Below are positions 14,423 to 28,970 of a stretch of DNA of 29,720 nt, in pieces. The stretch is from positions 1 to 29,720 of the IMG/VR virus record IMGVR_UViG_3300037104_000459; one strand, given 5' to 3'. The DNA is from a virus. Within the stretch, counting starts at the first letter, position 1. Each line of letters opens with the position of its first letter. The notes under the pieces were generated by a model, which saw only the letters and a program-made list of their open reading frames with translations, was not told the origin of the DNA and did not search any database. The position numbers and the translations under genes are program-made.

Positions 14423-15709
14423 TTATTCGCCATAACCAGGGTTTAACCCGGTGCCAAAGCGGTTGGCAAAGCGGTTGGCAAAGCGGTTGGCAAAGCGGTT
14501 GGCGAAGCCGGTTGGCGAAGCCGGTTGGCGAAGCCGGTTGGCGAAGCCGGTTGGACCGGGGCGAGAACCGGGGTTAATTTCAACCGCCTGGCATTTACGA
14601 TGAATATTTTCGCAGGCGATTATGGTTGTCCCAACCCCGCAAAAAGGATCGTAAACGTCACCTTGCGTGCAATTTCCAATTAACAGAGCAACCCAATCCA
14701 GCGGCTTGCTATGGTTATTTTCGGATTCGGCGTGAATTTCCGTAATGGGGGCGGAAAACACGTCGGATAGATGCTTCCCTCGCGGATCAGGATTAAATTG
14801 GTAAGAGCCGCGCGTGTTCGTCACTTTATGAGCTTTTAATGGTTCTCCGTAGTGCCAGCCATCGGGATTATATTTTGTCACGTCCCCAAACCATGCGCAG
14901 ATCTTCATCCGTCTTAGCGGGCGATTGGGTGTATACCAGGATGTCACGCAATCCCAAGCGAATAGCCATGCGGGAAAACCAAATAACGCAAATGCCTTGG
15001 CTATGGTCGGACCATCCCCGAACGCGAGAATGGATTCAAATTCACCGGGGCTGTGATATTCACTATCCCACTCAGGGTCATAAAATAACGTGGGTGATTG
15101 GGGTGTTGGGAATTTAGTCGAATCGCCACAGAGTAACCGGTGGTCACCGAGTAACCAGAGTTGACCGGTCTCGACACCCCATTTTTTGCGCAACTCTTCC
15201 GCCTTATCGATCTGGGGTTCGGCGTCCTGGTTGCCGGTGGGCGGGGCGGGCCACTCATCGAGTAGCGATTTCTCGTCAAAACCGAACTCGACCAAGTCTT
15301 TAATCTCAAACTGATTCGCCAGCGCGTCATAGTCCCAATCGCCTTGAAACGGCGCATTATCCGCGATGATGAACCTATCGCGTTGCTCGGGCGTTAGATC
15401 GGCCGCCTTGACCACCCAGGACGCCGGGCAGGCGGTCATACCCAAGCCTTGGGTTATCGCGCGGTAACGCTGGTTGCCGCCTATGACGGCTCCGGTGTCA
15501 TCGTAGACGATAAAGCGAAGCTCCATCATCCTGGGGAACTCGCGGATGGATTTGACGAGCTTGGCGAACGCGGTTTCGGAGATGGTCCGGGGGTTGGTGG
15601 GGTTGACGTGGATCGAGGACAGGTCGAAGGTCGGGAGACTGGGATCGAACGCGGGCGGTTCGGTGGCGTTGCCAATACCCGCGCCAATCTCACTATTTGC
15701 CTTCGACAT
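14423..15709 (-). CDS. ParB-like nuclease / DNA methyltransferase fusion with repeat-built C-terminus
   Basis: 428 residues from ATG at 15709, which has a strong AAGGAG 5-6 bases upstream. The N-terminus (about 28-150) is a ParB/Srx domain with NPTNPR and the GGNQRYRA signature (77-84). The C-terminal half is a beta-type N4/N6 adenine or cytosine methyltransferase: LLCGDS, motif IV-like YDPEW (210-214, usual form DPPY/W) and SAM-binding DPFCGVGTT (354-362). After CQAVEIN (about 379) the usual helix is replaced by repeated TGFANR units coded by a 12/13-base tandem repeat. Such fusions are common before terminase. Altered motif IV leaves activity in doubt. Confidence 0.8.
   Translation of the reverse strand: MSKANSEIGAGIGNATEPPAFDPSLPTFDLSSIHVNPTNPRTISETAFAKLVKSIREFPRMMELRFIVYDDTGAVIGGNQRYRAITQGLGMTACPASWVVKAADLTPEQRDRFIIADNAPFQGDWDYDALANQFEIKDLVEFGFDEKSLLDEWPAPPTGNQDAEPQIDKAEELRKKWGVETGQLWLLGDHRLLCGDSTKFPTPQSPTLFYDPEWDSEYHSPGEFESILAFGDGPTIAKAFALFGFPAWLFAWDCVTSWYTPNRPLRRMKICAWFGDVTKYNPDGWHYGEPLKAHKVTNTRGSYQFNPDPRGKHLSDVFSAPITEIHAESENNHSKPLDWVALLIGNCTQGDVYDPFCGVGTTIIACENIHRKCQAVEINPGSRPGPTGFANRLRQPASPTGFANRFANRFANRFANRFGTGLNPGYGE
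14461..14548. repeat. Tandem repeat, 3 x 12 bp then 4 x 13 bp
   Basis: Plus-strand units GGTTGGCAAAGC at 14461, 14473 and 14485 are followed by GGTTGGCGAAGCC at 14497, 14510, 14523 and 14536; partial units flank both ends. They are inside the 3' end of the methyltransferase gene. Twelve-base units keep frame (FANR repeats); 13-base units cycle through all frames, so copy number changes would alter the protein end. Confidence 0.9.
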
Positions 15710-15806
15710 CCGTTCTCCTTCGTTATCAGACCGTTCTCCGCCGTTCAATCACTCGTATTCGTTGACGGGTTAAAACCCGCCATGGGACACCGGTTTTCAC
15801 CGGGCA

Positions 15807-16064
15807 CTACCGGTTATTACCACGGGGAGGCAGAGGTTGGCAAGCCGGTATTATCGAGGGTGACTTGAGAATAGCGCTCTCGATCTCCAGCGGTATCAGT
15901 CGGTGCAACGGCAATACGTGCGCCATGGCCGATTCTCGGTCCAGGGCAATATCGAGTTGTTGTACGGGACCGGGTGGCATTTGGATAACCACCGTGATCA
16001 TGAATAGCGAGGGATTGCAAATCGGTAAAACAACAGTGGCAGGAATCAATGGGTGATCTTTCAT
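15807..16064 (-). CDS. Small hypothetical protein (85 aa)
   Basis: ATG at 16064 overlaps the upstream TGA (16061-16063), so translation is coupled. The protein begins MKDHPLIPATVVLPICNPSL and continues FMITVVIQMPPGPVQQLDIA, then has an Ala/His stretch and ends PLPPRGNNR. It has moderately hydrophobic beta-like strands but no clear membrane span or known motif. It lies between a Pro-rich small gene and the ParB-methyltransferase gene, with the CRISPR array just upstream of the pair. Function unknown. Confidence 0.55.
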   Translation of the reverse strand: MKDHPLIPATVVLPICNPSLFMITVVIQMPPGPVQQLDIALDRESAMAHVLPLHRLIPLEIESAILKSPSIIPACQPLPPRGNNR

Positions 16065-16423
16065 AACGGGTTTTCTGGGGTTGGTGGTTCGGAAGTTGCG
16101 TCGGATTCGTCCGCTCCAATCATCGCGTCGGCGGCGGCGAAGCAAAACGCGATGGTTTCCTTGCGGTTATCCGGTCGCCAACCGCCGTCCATTTGACCGG
16201 CCAGGATTTGCACCGCCGTCCAGTAACGCCGGGATATCCCAGGATAAGACCCATCCGCGCAACTCGCCGGGAACGCCGGTCCGCCGCCTTCATCCCAGGG
16301 ATCAATCTCGGGTTCTGGCGCAGGGGTGGGATAGGGTGGTGGCGTAGGGGGAATAGGGCCGGTCCAAAGTGGTTTGGTGGCAGTGGGTGCGCCCCAGGTA
16401 ATGGTGAGTTTGCCGATTTTCAT
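16061..16423 (-). CDS. Small late protein with Pro-rich linker (120 aa)
   Basis: ATG at 16423 gives MKIGKLTITWGAPTATKPLW, then a Pro-rich linker (about 24-40), acidic DPWDEGG, and a C-terminal helix region GISRRYWTAVQILAGQMDGG ... ETIAFCFAAADAMI. A C-terminal 'YA..ADAMI' helix of this kind occurs in many small phage proteins of unknown role. The frame stays open further upstream through three CRISPR repeats, but those repeats are not coding (see rejected list), so the first ATG after the array is chosen. No strong Shine-Dalgarno. It starts 22 bases after the array. Confidence 0.6.
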   Translation of the reverse strand: MKIGKLTITWGAPTATKPLWTGPIPPTPPPYPTPAPEPEIDPWDEGGGPAFPASCADGSYPGISRRYWTAVQILAGQMDGGWRPDNRKETIAFCFAAADAMIGADESDATSEPPTPENPL

Positions 16424-16444
16424 AATGGGTTTAATCAGGGCCTG

Positions 16445-16697
16445 CCCGCAGTAACCCTCGTTCCCTTCGGTTACTGCTGGGCCCCCAAGACCGCCGCAAC
16501 GTGCTTTGACCATGCGCCCGCAGTAACCCTCGTTCCCTTCGGTTACTGCTGGCGTTTGATCGGGGGGCGGTGCGCCCACCAAGATGTTCCCGCAGTAACC
16601 CTCGTTCCCTTCGGTTACTGCTGGAATTCTCGCAGCAGGACGATGCAACAGACCTGGAGCTCCCGCAGTAACCCTCGTTCCCTTCGGTTACTGCTGG
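16445..16697 (-). CRISPR. Mini-CRISPR array: 4 identical 36-bp repeats, 3 spacers, no cas genes
   Basis: Repeats lie at 16445-16480, 16517-16552, 16589-16624 and 16662-16697 and are identical over all 36 bases; bases just outside differ, so 36 is the true length. Spacers are 16481-16516 (36), 16553-16588 (36) and 16625-16661 (37) and share no sequence. Repeat ends form an inverted repeat, GCAGTAACC ... GGTTACTGC (12-base arms with one mismatch, 12-base centre CTCGTTCCCTTC on the plus strand), so the RNA can fold as a stem-loop. It lies in the 287-base gap between two minus-strand late genes and would be co-transcribed with them; the minus orientation is assumed. No cas gene, leader or tracrRNA-like match was seen in the window. 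The repeat class cannot be assigned with confidence; ends that pair with each other recall type II and some type V repeats. Confidence 0.93.
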
Positions 16698-16710
16698 CAT
16701 TTAACGCAAA

Positions 16711-17535
16711 TCATAATTGCACCTCATCTCCAGACACTCTTGCACCGTCGCCAAGCGCGCTTAAAAGTACCTGCTTAATGCCTTCGTCCATACCTTCGAT
16801 GCCCGATTTTTGGTATTCTCGGAGTTGCACATCGGGCGGAGCGATCTGCGTATCAGCGTCGAGCAAACCCAACTCGACGCAGGTTGCCCTGTCAACATCC
16901 TCGGTGCCCATTTGCGAATTATAACCGAAAGGCTCATAAGGTAAGTCAAATCCGCCAATGTCCGGGCTGTTCATCGCGAGCCAAAAAGCCAGATCATCCT
17001 TCAGGTGAATCTCGTCGCGGTGTTCTTCATGAAGCGGGCGCGGTTCTTGGACAAAACCAACTCTGATAAATCGTTGGCCTGGAAAATAATCCAATATTTC
17101 GGGCAGGTTGCCTTCCTCGAATTGCGCTCTGCCGAAACTCATACGCAGGTTCGTTTCAAAAATAAGCTGCGTCCGGGTCGTGCTCAAAAGATCGGTGATG
17201 CGTCCGCCTCCCTCATCCGGCCCGCCACCGAACATCTCTTTGGCGTCACGGACGAACCCAGCTCGCCCCTGGGCCTTCAACGCGATGGTGGTGGTGCCGT
17301 CCGGCAAGGTGACCGTCTCGACGGCCTTGGACAGAAAATCGTCGAGGAACGTCTTGTAGGAATTGAGCATGCGGGCGCTCGCCGTGTGCGCGCTGAAAAA
17401 GGCGTCTTGCCGAAAATACGGGGGCACGAAGTCGCGCCAGTCGGCGGCGGACCAGTCCACGGCCACGGGCTGGCGCTTTTTAAGCGCGGCCAGTGCTTGG
17501 CGGAACGGGGCGGCTTTGGATACGTCGATAGGCAT
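16711..17535 (-). CDS. Putative head morphogenesis protein (Mu gpF/SPP1 gp7-like)
   Basis: 274 residues; ATG at 17535 has GAGAGGA a few bases upstream. It begins MPIDVSKAAPFRQALAALKK. Middle segments NSYKTFLDDFLSKAVE, IFETNLRMSFGRAQFEE and the late RFIRVGFVQEPRPLHEEHRD look like the pattern of minor head proteins, where an 'R..W'-type segment is followed by a 'DSRTRPxHxxxxG'-type motif; here PRPLHEEHRDEIHLKDD could be the counterpart. Such proteins are injected or line the portal during head assembly. Placement before terminase is unusual for the family, so the call is tentative. Confidence 0.45.
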   Translation of the reverse strand: MPIDVSKAAPFRQALAALKKRQPVAVDWSAADWRDFVPPYFRQDAFFSAHTASARMLNSYKTFLDDFLSKAVETVTLPDGTTTIALKAQGRAGFVRDAKEMFGGGPDEGGGRITDLLSTTRTQLIFETNLRMSFGRAQFEEGNLPEILDYFPGQRFIRVGFVQEPRPLHEEHRDEIHLKDDLAFWLAMNSPDIGGFDLPYEPFGYNSQMGTEDVDRATCVELGLLDADTQIAPPDVQLREYQKSGIEGMDEGIKQVLLSALGDGARVSGDEVQL

Positions 17536-18586: not shown

Positions 18587-18678
18587 TCAGTTTCAGTTTC
18601 GTTACGGGTTCTCCGTTATCGTTCAGCTATCGCACTTTCAGTTCGTCGTTTCGTTCGTGTTCGTTCTTACTGTCCCCA

Positions 18679-23144: not shown

Positions 23145-24785
23145 TTAGTTGTCCTTGCAAGCCGGGTTGTTTTGAATGGGAATATCCTGCTCACGTACCG
23201 GAGATAACTCGACAATCCGCATCGTTCTATCCTCGATCTTGCATCGGATTATCTGGGTTGACTTGCCTTTGGTGTTCTTGAGCACCCGCAAGTTAAGTTC
23301 GTCCGGGGTGGTCGAGTCTCGCCAAATTCCAATGACCACACCGCTGGAATTTTCGATACTGCCCGAGTCCTTGGCGTCATGCAGAAATACCTCGGGTCCT
23401 TCTTTTCCGCGTCCGATCTGGCTGCACATGATAATCACCGTGCCCGTATTTTTGGCGACGATTTTTAATTGTTCAGCCACCCCGGAGGTTTTCTCGTAGC
23501 GAGAATTTCCAGACCCTTTGACGAGTTGAATGTAATCGACCAAAACCAGCGTGGGCCGCGTGCCGATGCGCAACTCGCTCTTGAGGATCAGCGATTCAAT
23601 TTCCTCGGGGGTTAACCGGGATTTTGAACAGGTGAAAACGTGGCCTATGGTTGAATAATCCAACCGCTTTTCCGTCCGGTAAATATCGTAAACTTCCGCG
23701 CCTGTCTTGCGCGTGGCGATCCCCACGAACCGCTCGAATGTCAGCGCGTCCGGCAGTTCAAGTTCGAAAAGCAGGGTCGAGACTTTGCAGCACATGGCGA
23801 TGTGTTGCAGCACGTAGGTTTTCAAGCTTCCGGTATCGCCCACGATGGAAACCAGTTCCCCACCCACGAGCGGGCGCACAGCGGACAAGCTTGGTATCCA
23901 GTCCCCCAGGTTCACCGTCCGGGTCTTGGACGTTTTGATGTGCTCGATATATTCCAGTTCCATTTCCGCCATGCTTTTAATCGGCAGTACCGTGCCCGCT
24001 AAAAGCACCTGGGCCGTATCGAACATCGGGGCCAGAGCATTCGCGAACGCCACCTTGTCTTGGAATGACGCCGCGAAATCGGAGATGTCTTTGGCAGGCG
24101 CGGGTATTTCGATCTTGCGAACGCTGTTGGCGTGGGGTTCCAATGAGGCCAACACTTGTTTCATGTGTTTGCGCCCGGGTTCGTCGTTGTCCCCGCACAG
24201 CACAATATCTTTTCCTTTGAGCGCCTCGGCGTAGGCATCATGCCATTTCCCCGCGCCACTACAGTTGCAGGTCGCCACCATGCCGATGCCGCGCAGGGTT
24301 TCTACGTCCTTCTCACCCTCGACAATCCACACATAGGGATTTTTTGGATTCTGCAATTCGGGCAGCCGGTACAAGATTTTCTCGACGCCTTCCGTATTCC
24401 AAATCCAATCTCCCTTTCCGTCGGGTCTGCGTTGGCGAAAACTTTTCGGCAATAGTCGGCACACCTGATAAGCGAGCGTGCCAAACCGATCTTTATAATC
24501 GTAGGTGGCGACGATCTCGCCGTGAGGGGCGATGTTGCTCCCGGCCAACTCGTGGTAAACCTCTTTCTTGTCTCGGTTCTCAAGTTTGGCGATGAACTCG
24601 ACCACGCTTCCACCTTCCCCGCACACATCGCACATCCAGGTATTTTTCTCGTTGTTTACCCGGAAGTTGGGGCGTTTTCCGTCTTTGTGAAATGGACAGG
24701 AGGCGTAGAATTCAGCGCCCTGTTTTTTAAAAGTTAGTCCGCGATCCTGGCAGACGGTTAGGAGATTATCCGCAATATGGTTCAT
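23145..24785 (-). CDS. Primase-helicase fusion (CHC2 zinc finger, TOPRIM, DnaB-like helicase)
   Basis: 546 residues, ATG 24785. The N-terminus has a CHC2-like primase zinc finger (Cys30, His33, Cys52, Cys55: ASCPFHK ... WMCDVCGEGGS). TOPRIM follows: IVEGEKDVETL (about 154-163) and LCGDNDEPGR (about 196-205). The helicase part has Walker A GDTGSLKT (316-323), Walker B LVLVDYIQL (413-421), a probable arginine-finger region CSQIGRGKEG and a C-terminal KNTKGKS. It primes and unwinds DNA at the phage fork, as in T7 gp4. Its start overlaps the initiator gene by 20 bases. Confidence 0.92.
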   Translation of the reverse strand: MNHIADNLLTVCQDRGLTFKKQGAEFYASCPFHKDGKRPNFRVNNEKNTWMCDVCGEGGSVVEFIAKLENRDKKEVYHELAGSNIAPHGEIVATYDYKDRFGTLAYQVCRLLPKSFRQRRPDGKGDWIWNTEGVEKILYRLPELQNPKNPYVWIVEGEKDVETLRGIGMVATCNCSGAGKWHDAYAEALKGKDIVLCGDNDEPGRKHMKQVLASLEPHANSVRKIEIPAPAKDISDFAASFQDKVAFANALAPMFDTAQVLLAGTVLPIKSMAEMELEYIEHIKTSKTRTVNLGDWIPSLSAVRPLVGGELVSIVGDTGSLKTYVLQHIAMCCKVSTLLFELELPDALTFERFVGIATRKTGAEVYDIYRTEKRLDYSTIGHVFTCSKSRLTPEEIESLILKSELRIGTRPTLVLVDYIQLVKGSGNSRYEKTSGVAEQLKIVAKNTGTVIIMCSQIGRGKEGPEVFLHDAKDSGSIENSSGVVIGIWRDSTTPDELNLRVLKNTKGKSTQIIRCKIEDRTMRIVELSPVREQDIPIQNNPACKDN

Positions 24786-25512
24786 GTTGTTTAGCTTTCG
24801 TGATTATTTTCCCGTTTCGTTTTTTCCCGTGGTGGGTTCCATTCATCCACTCGGGACTTTCCCGGCTCCATCGCGTGGTGATGTACTCAAGCCATTTTCT
24901 CGGGCAACGGTTGGCATCATTCCCGCCTCGACCGGCCCAATCGTCGTATACGTAGGAGGCGAAGTCCGGGGCCACACCAGCGTTGACGGTCATCGCAATC
25001 GCTTGATCCTTATCCGGGATTTCAATGCCTCCGCGATCCGGTGGAGATGTTTCCCCCGCTCCCCCTTCAGTACCTTTACCTTTACCTTTACCTTTACTAT
25101 TACTTGTGGGGCTTGGTAGCCCCTTTGAAGCTACTTCCAAGGTCCTGGCAAGATCCTCGTAAGGGCCTAAGAAACCACGGGCGAGCAAAGTCTTTAAAAC
25201 CCCTTTATGGCAAGGGTTTGCGGGGTTTAACTCACCTTGCTGAAACTGAATGAACTTGGTCAACCACCATTTGCCGTCCGCCACCACCTTAACGCGGTCA
25301 GAACCACCGGACGCGCTCGTGTTGAAGAGCCTCAAAGCCTCCTCTTGATCCAATGGAGCCCCTATCATGAAGCTTGCAAGCTCCATGTCAGGGTCCCAGA
25401 AGCCCGCCATGTCACAGGTATCCAGCAGGTATAAAAAGAACAATTTATAGAAGGGTGGCAGCTTGCGAAACCACGGGTCCGGCCACTTCTCGGTTGCGGT
25501 GAACCGTTTCAT
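24766..25512 (-). CDS. Replication initiator-like protein (winged helix N-terminus, helicase-loader context)
   Basis: 248 residues from ATG 25512, which overlaps the upstream stop (ATGA) and has GAGG nearby; a longer start is unlikely. N-terminus RFTATEKWPDPWFRKLPPFY and FFLYLLDTCDMAGFWDPDME matches phage replication proteins with a winged-helix fold. A repeat-coded linker KGKGKGKG (about 155-162) joins a C-terminal region with ASYVYDDWAGRGGNDANRCP and KWLEYITTRW. The order initiator then helicase is standard (lambda O/P-like). It may bind an origin and load the helicase. Confidence 0.68.
   Translation of the reverse strand: MKRFTATEKWPDPWFRKLPPFYKLFFLYLLDTCDMAGFWDPDMELASFMIGAPLDQEEALRLFNTSASGGSDRVKVVADGKWWLTKFIQFQQGELNPANPCHKGVLKTLLARGFLGPYEDLARTLEVASKGLPSPTSNSKGKGKGKGTEGGAGETSPPDRGGIEIPDKDQAIAMTVNAGVAPDFASYVYDDWAGRGGNDANRCPRKWLEYITTRWSRESPEWMNGTHHGKKRNGKIITKAKQHEPYCG
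25072..25097 (-). repeat. Hexamer tandem repeat coding a KG linker
   Basis: About four copies of the plus-strand unit CCTTTA, with partial units on each side, code for the alternating Lys-Gly linker of the replication protein. Six-base units preserve the reading frame if copy number changes. Confidence 0.85.
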
Positions 25513-25841
25513 TCGGGGGCCTCCATCCGTGCCTCGTGGCACCGGTCACATTGCGCGATCAAGAGACCCTTCGGATATTCCCAGGCCATGCGCCCGCGCA
25601 GGTAGTGGCAATGGTGGACTTGCAAGTTGCGGGTGTTGCCGCACTCGGAGCACCTGAAATTGTATTCCCTAAGCACGTCGATCCGCCGCCGCATCCAGCG
25701 TTCATCCTGAAGTTGCTCCGCGTAAGATGGCGCGGGTTCCTGGCGGTTTTTATCGCCGTTCGTGAGAAGTCTAAGGCGTTGGGTAAATTGGACGCCAAGA
25801 CCGGCGTCAAGCGGGTTTAATTCGGATCGTTTCGCGTTCAT
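25509..25841 (-). CDS. HNH-type zinc protein
   Basis: 110 residues: N-terminal helix, then RCSECGNTRNLQVHHCHYLR, GRMAWEYPKGLLIAQCDRCH and EARMEAPE. The CSEC/CDRC pairs and the 'LQVHH..Y..G..aWeYp...L..lC..CH' pattern are those of a small HNH domain found in phages, often annotated HNH endonuclease-like. The first His pair is present, but it may be structural rather than a nuclease. Its stop is coupled to the replication protein start (25509-25512). Confidence 0.75.
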   Translation of the reverse strand: MNAKRSELNPLDAGLGVQFTQRLRLLTNGDKNRQEPAPSYAEQLQDERWMRRRIDVLREYNFRCSECGNTRNLQVHHCHYLRGRMAWEYPKGLLIAQCDRCHEARMEAPE

Positions 25842-26562: not shown

Positions 26563-27045
26563 TTAATTAGCGGCAATTGTCCGGGGATCGCACACCAGGG
26601 CGAAGCTTCCCGAGCCCGCGTCTGCCGAAAATTGGTAAAGCGGCAACATCTGGGAGGCCAGCCGTCCAACCGACACCGTGTACCGGGTGATCCCGGCCAC
26701 CGGAAGTCCGGCGCTCAGGCCAAAAAAGAACGCGGAGTACGCTTTTCCCTGGGTGAAGGAAAACACGTTCGTCCCGTTCTGGGTCACCAAGAACAATCCG
26801 CCACCCAGGCACGGACTCGCGGTCCTTACCGCCAGGGGCACCCCGTGTTGCGGGTTGGTGATTGACCCAGGGTTGATGACCACGGAGCCGTAGGGATGGC
26901 GCGTAGGCGTCACCGGAGGCTCTACCGGGGGAATTATGGAAGCCGGGATTGAAGTGATGGCCGCCAGGGCGAGCAGGACCGCCGCCGCGCCCGTGGTAAC
27001 TGAGTTTCTGTTTCTGTTTGTCGTTTTCATCGTCGTTTCTTTCAT
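26563..27045 (-). CDS. Exported protein of unknown function (early leader)
   Basis: ATG 27045 (or 27030) leads into a signal peptide: basic NRNRN, core AAAVLLALAAITSIPASIIP. The mature part has PHYGSVVINPGSITNPQHG-like Gly/Pro/Asn-rich strands and PLYQFSADAGSGSFALVCDP at the end; beta-rich with two Cys. Expressed from the leader at 27022-27070. Two exported proteins in one phage (see 503) are notable. Possible envelope modification or exclusion function; unproven. Confidence 0.6.
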   Translation of the reverse strand: MKETTMKTTNRNRNSVTTGAAAVLLALAAITSIPASIIPPVEPPVTPTRHPYGSVVINPGSITNPQHGVPLAVRTASPCLGGGLFLVTQNGTNVFSFTQGKAYSAFFFGLSAGLPVAGITRYTVSVGRLASQMLPLYQFSADAGSGSFALVCDPRTIAAN

Positions 27046-27070
27046 TTTCGTTTATTCGTTCCTGATTATA
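27022..27070 (-). promoter_or_regulatory. Early promoter-leader module A
   Basis: A -10 hexamer TATAAT (27065-27070) sits two bases from a leader block (27022-27063) that matches 28027-28065 except for a small insertion. No consensus -35 is seen at 15-18 bases. The leader carries ATGAAAGAAACGACGATG, which starts the gene twice in frame. Confidence 0.55.
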
Positions 27071-27106
27071 TATCGGCATTATCCTGGGAAACTGAAGCGA
27101 ATATTC

Positions 27107-27162: not shown

Positions 27163-28047
27163 TCAAACCCCGCACATACCTTCACATTCATTGTTCCAAA
27201 GCGATCCTTGCCCGCGCTCCTCTTCCGTACTCCAGTCGATTTCCACGAGTGGAACGCATTTGCGGTGCAAGAACGGGGTCGAGTGGAAATTATCGCTGGT
27301 TGCCTTGGCCACTTGTAAATCCTGTTCGAACTTAACCGCCTTAATGAACTCCGCCGGTTCAAACGTTTTGAGACGTCGCCATTCCCGGTCGTCATGGAAC
27401 GGGCAGAACACGCATGCCGAACGGGGAGGCTCGGGGAAATGATGATCCTCCATCCAGCGGAGGCAATCCGTTCGGCTCATGCGCTTCTCGATCAGGGGCC
27501 AGCGGTTTTCCTGCCAGACATCCCGGCTTTCTTTCATGCGCCAAACTTCGTCGAGGCTAATGCCTATCCACTGGATTACGCTGACGGTTTTCTGGCCGCG
27601 TTTTATTTCCGCCTCCCCGCGCACGAATTTTCTGATCGGTTTGATTTTAAAGTCCCGTGTGCATCCGCGTTTGATGATCTTCCCTACTTTATTCGCGGAG
27701 CTCAACGTAAAGTTTGGAATGCTGCAAGTTGAGAATTTTCGACCATCCTTGGTAACGTGCATTTGCAGCACCTTCTTTTCCAGATTGCCCGCCGTAACGG
27801 TGTGGACTGGGAATGGTAAATGTTTTCGCAGCCATTCCAGCCAGGTATAAACCGTTTGCGGCTCGGCTCCGGTGTCGGCGAACACTGCGAATTTTGGCAT
27901 GGGCGCAAATTCTCCGGTGGCAGCCATGAGTGCCATGGTCGAGGATTGTACGCCTGCTCCCAGGCTGATTACGTGTATAGGGTCCGGAGAATCCGTGTTT
28001 ACCGTGTTAATTCTGTCTGTCGTATTCGTTTTCATCGTCGTTTTCAT
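27163..28047 (-). CDS. PAPS reductase-like (adenine nucleotide alpha-hydrolase) protein
   Basis: 294 residues. PP-loop-like ISLGAGVQSSTMAL (about 27-40), then FAVFADTGAEP, KFSTCSIPNFT (Cys about 108), KRGCTRDFKIKPI (Cys about 129) and SACVFCPFHDD (Cys about 212 and 215). Cys pairs and the PP-loop match the phosphoadenylylsulfate reductase-like phage family, related to DndC-type sulfur transfer proteins; the Cys probably bind an Fe-S cluster. Substrate is unknown. It lies beside a cytosine methyltransferase, suggesting a DNA modification or nucleotide-chemistry role. Starts with paired ATGs (MKTTMKT). Confidence 0.72.
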   Translation of the reverse strand: MKTTMKTNTTDRINTVNTDSPDPIHVISLGAGVQSSTMALMAATGEFAPMPKFAVFADTGAEPQTVYTWLEWLRKHLPFPVHTVTAGNLEKKVLQMHVTKDGRKFSTCSIPNFTLSSANKVGKIIKRGCTRDFKIKPIRKFVRGEAEIKRGQKTVSVIQWIGISLDEVWRMKESRDVWQENRWPLIEKRMSRTDCLRWMEDHHFPEPPRSACVFCPFHDDREWRRLKTFEPAEFIKAVKFEQDLQVAKATSDNFHSTPFLHRKCVPLVEIDWSTEEERGQGSLWNNECEGMCGV

Positions 28048-28072
28048 TTTCGTTTATTCGTTCCTATTTATA
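28027..28072 (-). promoter_or_regulatory. Early promoter-leader module B
   Basis: A -10 TATAAA (28067-28072) lies two bases from a leader block (28027-28065) shared with 27022-27063. The same spacing in both copies supports a real promoter. The block contains ATGAAAACGACGATG, the double start of the PAPS reductase-like gene. Confidence 0.55.
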
Positions 28073-28133
28073 TCAACGAGTTGCTTCATAATTTGTGTTT
28101 AAGCGCCGGTTTCTCCGCGGGGTTAGCTTCGGC

Positions 28134-28970
28134 CTAGGCATTGAACTGGGCTTTGATCGCGCTTAGAATCACGTAGGCAACTTGGGGAACGACGCTGTTT
28201 CCGAGGGCTTTGATTCTCTCACGGCGGTCCAGTTTTTGGGAAATCCCATGTACCTCTCGCAAAAGGCCGAAGTCAGTTTCAATCGTGCAAGGCCGATCAC
28301 TTTCGACAAGGGCCGAGCGTTCTTCTCGTTGCCCCGCAGATTTTGAATTAGGTCTCCGCGTTGTCCCTGGTCGGAGTCCGTTGCTCGAAGCGTGGGCATC
28401 ATGCTCTCTATTTTTTGGGTCAACGTCATTGACCATGGATGTTTGCATTCTTGTTTCACCGGTCCTCGTTTCGTCTCCGAACTTAATAGGGTGGGAAATG
28501 ATGAAGACCCGTTCTCTTTCGTGATCCGCGCCAACGGAGCAAGCCGGTATAGTTTCCCAGCAACCATCATACCCTGCCGCATGGATTTCACCGAGGATTC
28601 GCTCGAAGGCATATCCGCCGTGAAGAGAAAGAATTCCTGGCGGGTTCTCAAACACCGCCCAACGGGGTCGAAGCTCGCGTAATATTCGAAGTGCTTCGGG
28701 CCACAGCCACCGGATGTCCTCTTCACCACGCCGCGCCCCGGCACAGCTAGCAGGCGAGCAAGGAGGGCCTCCCGTAAGCAAGTCAGGCGATGCAAGCGTG
28801 GTTCGGTCGATGTTTCTACAGTCTCCATAATTCGGTACGTTTGGCCAATGTTTGGCGAGCACTTTACTCGCGTAAGGGTCGATCTCGGAGAACCCGATGG
28901 TTTCAATCCCGGCCCAGTGCGCTGCGAGGCTGAAGCCCCCAATGCCGCTGAATAAATCCAGGTGCGTCAT
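28134..28970 (-). CDS. C5-cytosine DNA methyltransferase
   Basis: 278 residues. Motif I LDLFSGIGGFSLA (4-16), motif II-like SEIDPYASKVL, motif IV GGPPCSPAS (catalytic Cys about 71; Ser replaces the usual Gln), motif VI ENPPG (about 108-112), motif VIII HERERVFII and motif X ALGNSVVPQ near 256-265. The short target-recognition region between VIII and X is expected. It likely protects phage DNA from host restriction. Just after an ABA-sandwich gene, with four bases between. Confidence 0.9.
   Translation of the reverse strand: MTHLDLFSGIGGFSLAAHWAGIETIGFSEIDPYASKVLAKHWPNVPNYGDCRNIDRTTLASPDLLTGGPPCSPASCAGARRGEEDIRWLWPEALRILRELRPRWAVFENPPGILSLHGGYAFERILGEIHAAGYDGCWETIPACSVGADHERERVFIISHPIKFGDETRTGETRMQTSMVNDVDPKNREHDAHASSNGLRPGTTRRPNSKSAGQREERSALVESDRPCTIETDFGLLREVHGISQKLDRRERIKALGNSVVPQVAYVILSAIKAQFNA

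What the first reader, a model, noticed from the sequence alone, without database searches (positions are those of the whole stretch)
16445..16697. Cas-less mini-CRISPR array inside a phage late operon
Four 36-base repeats are identical, and three unrelated spacers have lengths 36, 36 and 37 bases, which is the hallmark geometry of a CRISPR array (72, 72, 73-base period). Repeat ends pair (GCAGTAACC with GGTTACTGC). No cas gene is present in the 29.7-kb window, so the array would depend on a host or helper effector. Mini-arrays in viruses are known to target rival viruses, but carriage in a Mu-like/siphovirus head-gene region with this repeat is not one I recognise.
Basis: partly seen in the sequence, partly recalled or inferred. 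Interest (0 to 1): 0.95.

Follow-up and report, generated by a model that had tools for sequence, protein, structure and literature searches.

The report
Cas-less CRISPR-like array in a phage
An uncultivated phage carries a tiny CRISPR-like array (four identical 36-base hairpin repeats with three unrelated spacers) without any detectable CRISPR protein gene, so it most likely borrows its host's CRISPR machinery, a trick already known from other viruses; neither its host nor its targets could be found.

Summary
Four identical 36-mers lie at 16445, 16517, 16589 and 16662, separated by unrelated spacers of 36, 36 and 37 bases; shuffled sequence never gives this. The array fills a 287-bp gap between two minus-strand genes: a head-morphogenesis-like gene (16711-17535) and a small ORF (16061-16423). 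It sits between the replication and packaging modules. No cas gene was recognised in 30 ORFs scanned. Best reading (about 0.7): a Cas-less, leaderless, virus-borne mini-CRISPR array that would work through the host's effector. This kind is known; an archaeal virus (Chiyouvirus) has arrays with the same four-repeat, three-spacer layout.

The decisive links are missing. The exact repeat occurs in no genome of 84,980 species and in no other IMG/VR contig. Its 9+9-bp stem occurs elsewhere only singly. 19-20-base cores of all three spacers hit nothing in IMG/VR. Relatives at about 40% protein identity lack an array there. The repeat is one full-length hairpin without the unpaired tag common in type I/III repeats, so a non-CRISPR hairpin cluster (DNA- or RNA-binding sites) stays a serious rival. 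A protein-repeat reading is unlikely: the 73-base step breaks the frame and codon statistics are non-coding.

The parts
16445..16480 (.). repeat 1 (36 nt, identical to the others)
16481..16516 (.). spacer 1 (36 nt) GCCCCCAAGACCGCCGCAACGTGCTTTGACCATGCG
   Evidence: no 20-nt core hit in IMG/VR
16517..16552 (.). repeat 2
16553..16588 (.). spacer 2 (36 nt) CGTTTGATCGGGGGGCGGTGCGCCCACCAAGATGTT
   Evidence: no 19-nt core hit in IMG/VR
16589..16624 (.). repeat 3
16625..16661 (.). spacer 3 (37 nt) AATTCTCGCAGCAGGACGATGCAACAGACCTGGAGCT
   Evidence: no 20-nt core hit in IMG/VR
16662..16697 (.). repeat 4 (not degenerate)
16424..16710 (-). intergenic gap that holds the array; if co-transcribed with the neighbouring genes, the RNA is read on the minus strand, where the hairpin is the more stable one
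   Evidence: gene layout; fold; no sigma-70 promoter beside it
16711..17535 (-). flanking gene, 274 aa, head-morphogenesis-like (about 37-39% identity to Akkermansia phages Chambord and Chantilly)
16061..16423 (-). flanking ORF, 120 aa, no family; its frame stays open back through repeats 1-3 to a TTG at 16648

Best explanation
A virus-borne mini-CRISPR array without cas genes and without a recognisable leader. Shown: four identical palindromic repeats, three unrelated spacers of near-constant length, an intergenic place in a phage contig, no cas gene recognised. Inferred: the array is transcribed, probably by read-through on the minus strand together with the flanking genes; the hairpin repeats are recognised and processed by the host's crRNA-processing machinery; the crRNAs load host effector complexes and direct them against competing mobile elements (superinfection exclusion). 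The repeats may also act as decoys that occupy host Cas proteins. The spacers were probably gained in an earlier host by Cas1-Cas2 or by recombination with a host array.
For: Geometry and identity. Not chance. Exact copying of only the 36-nt unit with unrelated DNA between copies, at a 36-37-nt ruler, is what Cas1-Cas2 produces; slippage would copy the spacers too (inference). Strong hairpin. The period 72/72/73 breaks any common reading frame and codon statistics are non-coding in all six frames. Absence from relatives at the same junction fits an accessory insertion. Precedents: phage mini-arrays lack leaders (PMC6858448); Chiyouvirus carries two arrays of four repeats and three spacers, one of them without known targets (PMC10848311).
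Against: The repeat occurs in no genome of 84,980 species and in no other IMG/VR contig. The 9+9 stem is found elsewhere only singly. No Rfam family fits. Spacer cores have no hit in IMG/VR, and phages and plasmids give only chance-level matches. No promoter or leader. The whole repeat is one hairpin (12-nt arms, 12-nt loop) with no unpaired 8-nt tag and no ATTGAAAS-type end, which is unusual for type I/III repeats (own knowledge).
Confidence: 0.68

Rival explanations
1. Not CRISPR: a cluster of four identical hairpin sites bound by a phage or host protein as DNA or RNA (packaging/pac site, partition-like or origin site, or a structured untranslated RNA between the replication and packaging modules), spaced at about seven helical turns.
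For: The conserved unit is exactly the hairpin, ends included. It lies close to a ParB-domain/methyltransferase gene (14423-15748) and the terminase genes. No CRISPR counterpart was found anywhere. The flanks of copies 1 and 2 extend the stem.
Against: Perfect identity of all 36 bases including the 12-nt loop is more than protein sites usually need. The stem extension is not significant (p 0.07-0.19). No such cluster in 80 TerL relatives or next to the homologous head gene. The hairpins are not followed by T runs, so they are not intrinsic terminators.
Confidence: 0.2
2. Repeat-mimic decoy (Racr-like): the transcribed repeats titrate host Cas6/Cas proteins and the spacers are irrelevant.
For: No targets found for any spacer. 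Racrs are intergenic repeat mimics (PMC10651486).
Against: Racrs are solitary units; this is a regular four-repeat array with uniform spacers. No host repeat is known to be mimicked.
Confidence: 0.08
3. Repeats within a protein: the 120-aa ORF continues upstream through three in-frame copies (PAVTEGNEGYCG every 24 residues).
For: The frame 16061-16648 is open and 72 is a multiple of 3.
Against: The fourth copy is out of frame (73). The array is also open in other frames. Codon log-odds are negative or zero in all frames of the array against +0.12 to +0.28 for three clear genes (those genes were in the training set). Third codon positions never vary among copies, and the stretches between copies share no similarity.
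Confidence: 0.04

Closest known systems
Mini-CRISPR arrays of Saccharolobus portogloboviruses SPV1/SPV2 (PMC6858448)
   Same: Few spacers, intergenic, no cas genes in the virus
   Different: SPV repeats and leaders match host arrays and spacers match a rival virus; here no host repeat, leader or target was found, and there are three spacers rather than one or two
Chiyouvirus mini-CRISPR arrays 1 and 2 (PMC10848311)
   Same: Four repeats and three spacers each; array 2 has no known targets
   Different: Array 1's repeat equals the host's, two spacers are self-targeting, and the virus has a cas2-like gene; none of these is seen here
RNA anti-CRISPRs / solitary repeat units (PMC10651486)
   Same: CRISPR-like repeat in an intergenic region of a phage without cas
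   Different: Solitary there, a regular four-copy array here; no cognate host repeat known here
Type III toxin-antitoxin RNA repeats (ToxIN type; own knowledge)
   Same: Tandem structured repeats of about 36 nt
   Different: Those are contiguous and lie beside a toxin gene; here 36-nt unrelated spacers and no toxin gene recognised

Membership tests
virus-borne mini-CRISPR array | near-identical direct repeats of CRISPR length | tested here: met
   4 identical 36-mers
virus-borne mini-CRISPR array | unrelated spacers of uniform length | tested here: met
   36, 36, 37 nt; no similarity beyond shuffles
virus-borne mini-CRISPR array | carried by a virus, no cas genes | tested here: met
   terminase, portal, capsid, protease present; PADLOC on 30 ORFs and a Cas1 search negative; the contig may be incomplete
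virus-borne mini-CRISPR array | repeat identical or close to the host's CRISPR repeat | tested here: inconclusive
   no exact match in 84,980 species; stem never repeated; no array match in about 580 genomes of two phyla; host unknown and Verrucomicrobiota could not be sampled with mismatches
virus-borne mini-CRISPR array | spacers match other viruses or plasmids | tested here: inconclusive
   19-20-nt cores: no hit in IMG/VR; blastn on phages and plasmids chance-level only; diverged or unsequenced targets would be missed
virus-borne mini-CRISPR array | transcription and crRNA processing | not testable with these tools
   no RNA data; no sigma-70 promoter next to the array
RNA anti-CRISPR (solitary repeat unit) | solitary repeat | tested here: not met
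   four regularly spaced copies
Type III toxin-antitoxin RNA repeats | contiguous repeats beside a toxin gene | tested here: not met
   36-37-nt spacers; no toxin family in the flanking ORFs
repeats within a protein | copies in one reading frame with coding codon statistics | tested here: not met
   73-nt step breaks the frame; log-odds not coding

The most novel reading that the evidence does not exclude
The array belongs to no described CRISPR repeat class: its repeat is wholly a 12-12-12 hairpin without a tag, used either by an uncharacterised host effector or by a non-CRISPR system that spaces identical hairpins regularly along a phage genome.
Probability: 0.2. Interest if true: 0.65.

Novelty: new member of a known kind. 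Interest (0 to 1): 0.42.

Why it matters
The repeat is then a ready probe for finding that host and its effector type. If it is not CRISPR, a regularly spaced hairpin cluster between the replication and packaging modules would be an undescribed phage element that CRISPR finders misread.

Tried and rejected
Exact repeat against genomes and IMG/VR: none. Stem pattern: 106 bacterial/archaeal and 5 viral stretches, all single hairpins. Rfam at lax threshold: only meaningless microRNA/snoRNA-type scores. Self-targeting in the window: best matches equal shuffles. Short DNA matches in Streptomyces phage ZL12 and a Rhodococcus plasmid (E 0.3 and 10): no array there. Two weak Planctomycetota genome hits across the repeat 1/spacer 1 junction (E 1.5e-4 and 5e-4 per genome, 294 genomes searched); the one examined lies in a Mur-ligase-like reading frame, so chance similarity. 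Stem extension by the flanks: not significant. Intrinsic terminators: rejected, no T runs. Integron attC sites: rejected, no GTTRRRY/RYYYAAC boxes and no cassette genes (read from the sequence). The repeat as text in papers: none. Verrucomicrobiota could not be sampled with the genome search, because no genome handle of that phylum was reachable. Searches with the terminase and the neighbouring gene gave only distant relatives.

Full report
Observation. The four 36-base repeats are real and identical, at 16445-16480, 16517-16552, 16589-16624 and 16662-16697; spacers are 36, 36 and 37 bases. Base identity stops at the repeat ends. Spacers do not resemble one another, and neither spacers nor repeat have another copy in the window. 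Shuffled windows never give a regularly spaced three-copy family of 10-mers or longer. The same detector run over about 190 unrelated loci found mainly families with periods divisible by 3, as expected of repeats within proteins, and nothing like this.

Surroundings. The window is an IMG/VR virus record of 29,720 bases. The recognised genes all lie on the minus strand: terminase, portal, head protease, major head protein and a tail protein at low coordinates, and HNH, resolvase, primase-helicase, PAPS reductase and DNA methyltransferase genes at high coordinates. The array occupies the gap 16424-16710 between the two modules. Upstream in the direction of transcription lies a 274-aa gene whose residues 34-238 match 'head morphogenesis' proteins of Akkermansia phages Chambord and Chantilly at about 37%. 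Downstream lie an ORF of 120 aa without family, another small ORF, and a ParB-domain/methyltransferase gene before the terminase genes. The phage is far from anything known: TerL relatives are at most about 43% identical over most of the protein, the portal 22-25%. The Akkermansia match hints at a Verrucomicrobiota host, but TerL matches point elsewhere, so the host is not known.

Is it coding? The frame of the 120-aa ORF is open backwards through repeats 1 to 3, and the plus strand is open through the whole array, so an open frame is not evidence here. The 73-base step puts repeat 4 in another frame, the copies have no synonymous change, and codon log-odds are zero or negative in all six frames over the array, against +0.12 to +0.28 for three clear genes (those genes were part of the training set). 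The protein reading is unlikely.

Is it CRISPR? For: geometry, identity, hairpin, intergenic place, and absence from distant relatives at the same junction. Copying only the 36-base unit with unrelated 36-37-base inserts is hard to explain except by Cas1-Cas2 or by recombination with an array (inference). Against or missing: the repeat is in no genome of 84,980 species and no other IMG/VR contig; the 9+9 stem with loops of 6-18 is found in 106 genome stretches, and with loops of 8-16 in 5 viral ones, never repeated; no array match in about 580 genomes of two phyla; no Rfam family; 19-20-base cores of the spacers hit nothing in IMG/VR, and blastn on phages and plasmids gives only chance-level matches; no promoter-like site beside the array. 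No cas homologue was found in 30 ORFs with PADLOC or with a Cas1 profile; the contig may be incomplete.

A caution from the anatomy: the conserved unit equals the hairpin itself, 12-base arms and a 12-base loop, with no unpaired tag. Type I and III repeats usually leave an unpaired 3' tag; repeats paired at their ends occur in class 2 systems such as II-C and VI-B, but with about 30-base spacers (own knowledge). So the repeat cannot be assigned to a subtype, and a cluster of protein-binding hairpins remains possible. Pairing between the flanks of each copy was tested and is not significant.

Comparison. Virus-borne mini-arrays without cas genes are established: SPV1/SPV2 (PMC6858448), phage and prophage mini-arrays that lack leaders (same paper), and Chiyouvirus with two arrays of four repeats and three spacers, one without known targets (PMC10848311). 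A review describes mini-arrays whose repeats equal the host's and whose spacers mostly target related viruses (PMC11656645). This locus has the anatomy, but neither the host-repeat match nor the target match could be shown. Solitary repeat units that act as RNA anti-CRISPRs (PMC10651486) differ in being solitary.

Verdict. Observation confirmed; interpretation partly supported. Most likely a new member of a known kind, with host, effector type and targets unknown.

Noticed in passing
window 14460-14554 (-): Tandem 12-13-bp repeats (consensus CGGTTGGCGAAGC, about 7.5 copies) at the 3' end of the ParB-domain/methyltransferase gene, encoding a GFANRFANRFANR-like tail.
   Followed up: partly
window about 27030-27071 and 28032-28073 (-): Two nearly identical start regions TATAA(A/T)(T/C)AGGAACGAATAAACGAAAATGAAA before two genes, with weaker copies near 18643 and 25845: probably a repeated early promoter/ribosome-binding unit.
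   Followed up: partly
window 27163-28047 (-): PAPS-reductase-like protein (phrog_424, E 1.5e-47) that also matches the PADLOC model SspD (E 1.3e-19); beside a C5-cytosine methyltransferase gene at 28134-28970.
   Followed up: no
L193, L194, L197, L198: The homologous head-morphogenesis gene is longer in relatives (about 557-661 aa) than here (274 aa); in the Akkermansia phages the part beyond the shared domain holds a CHEIGHYVD motif that looks like a zinc-peptidase site.
   Followed up: no
window 25071-25097: Short simple repeat (TACCTT, 4.5 copies) inside the minus-strand ORF 24766-25542, next to the primase-helicase gene.
   Followed up: no
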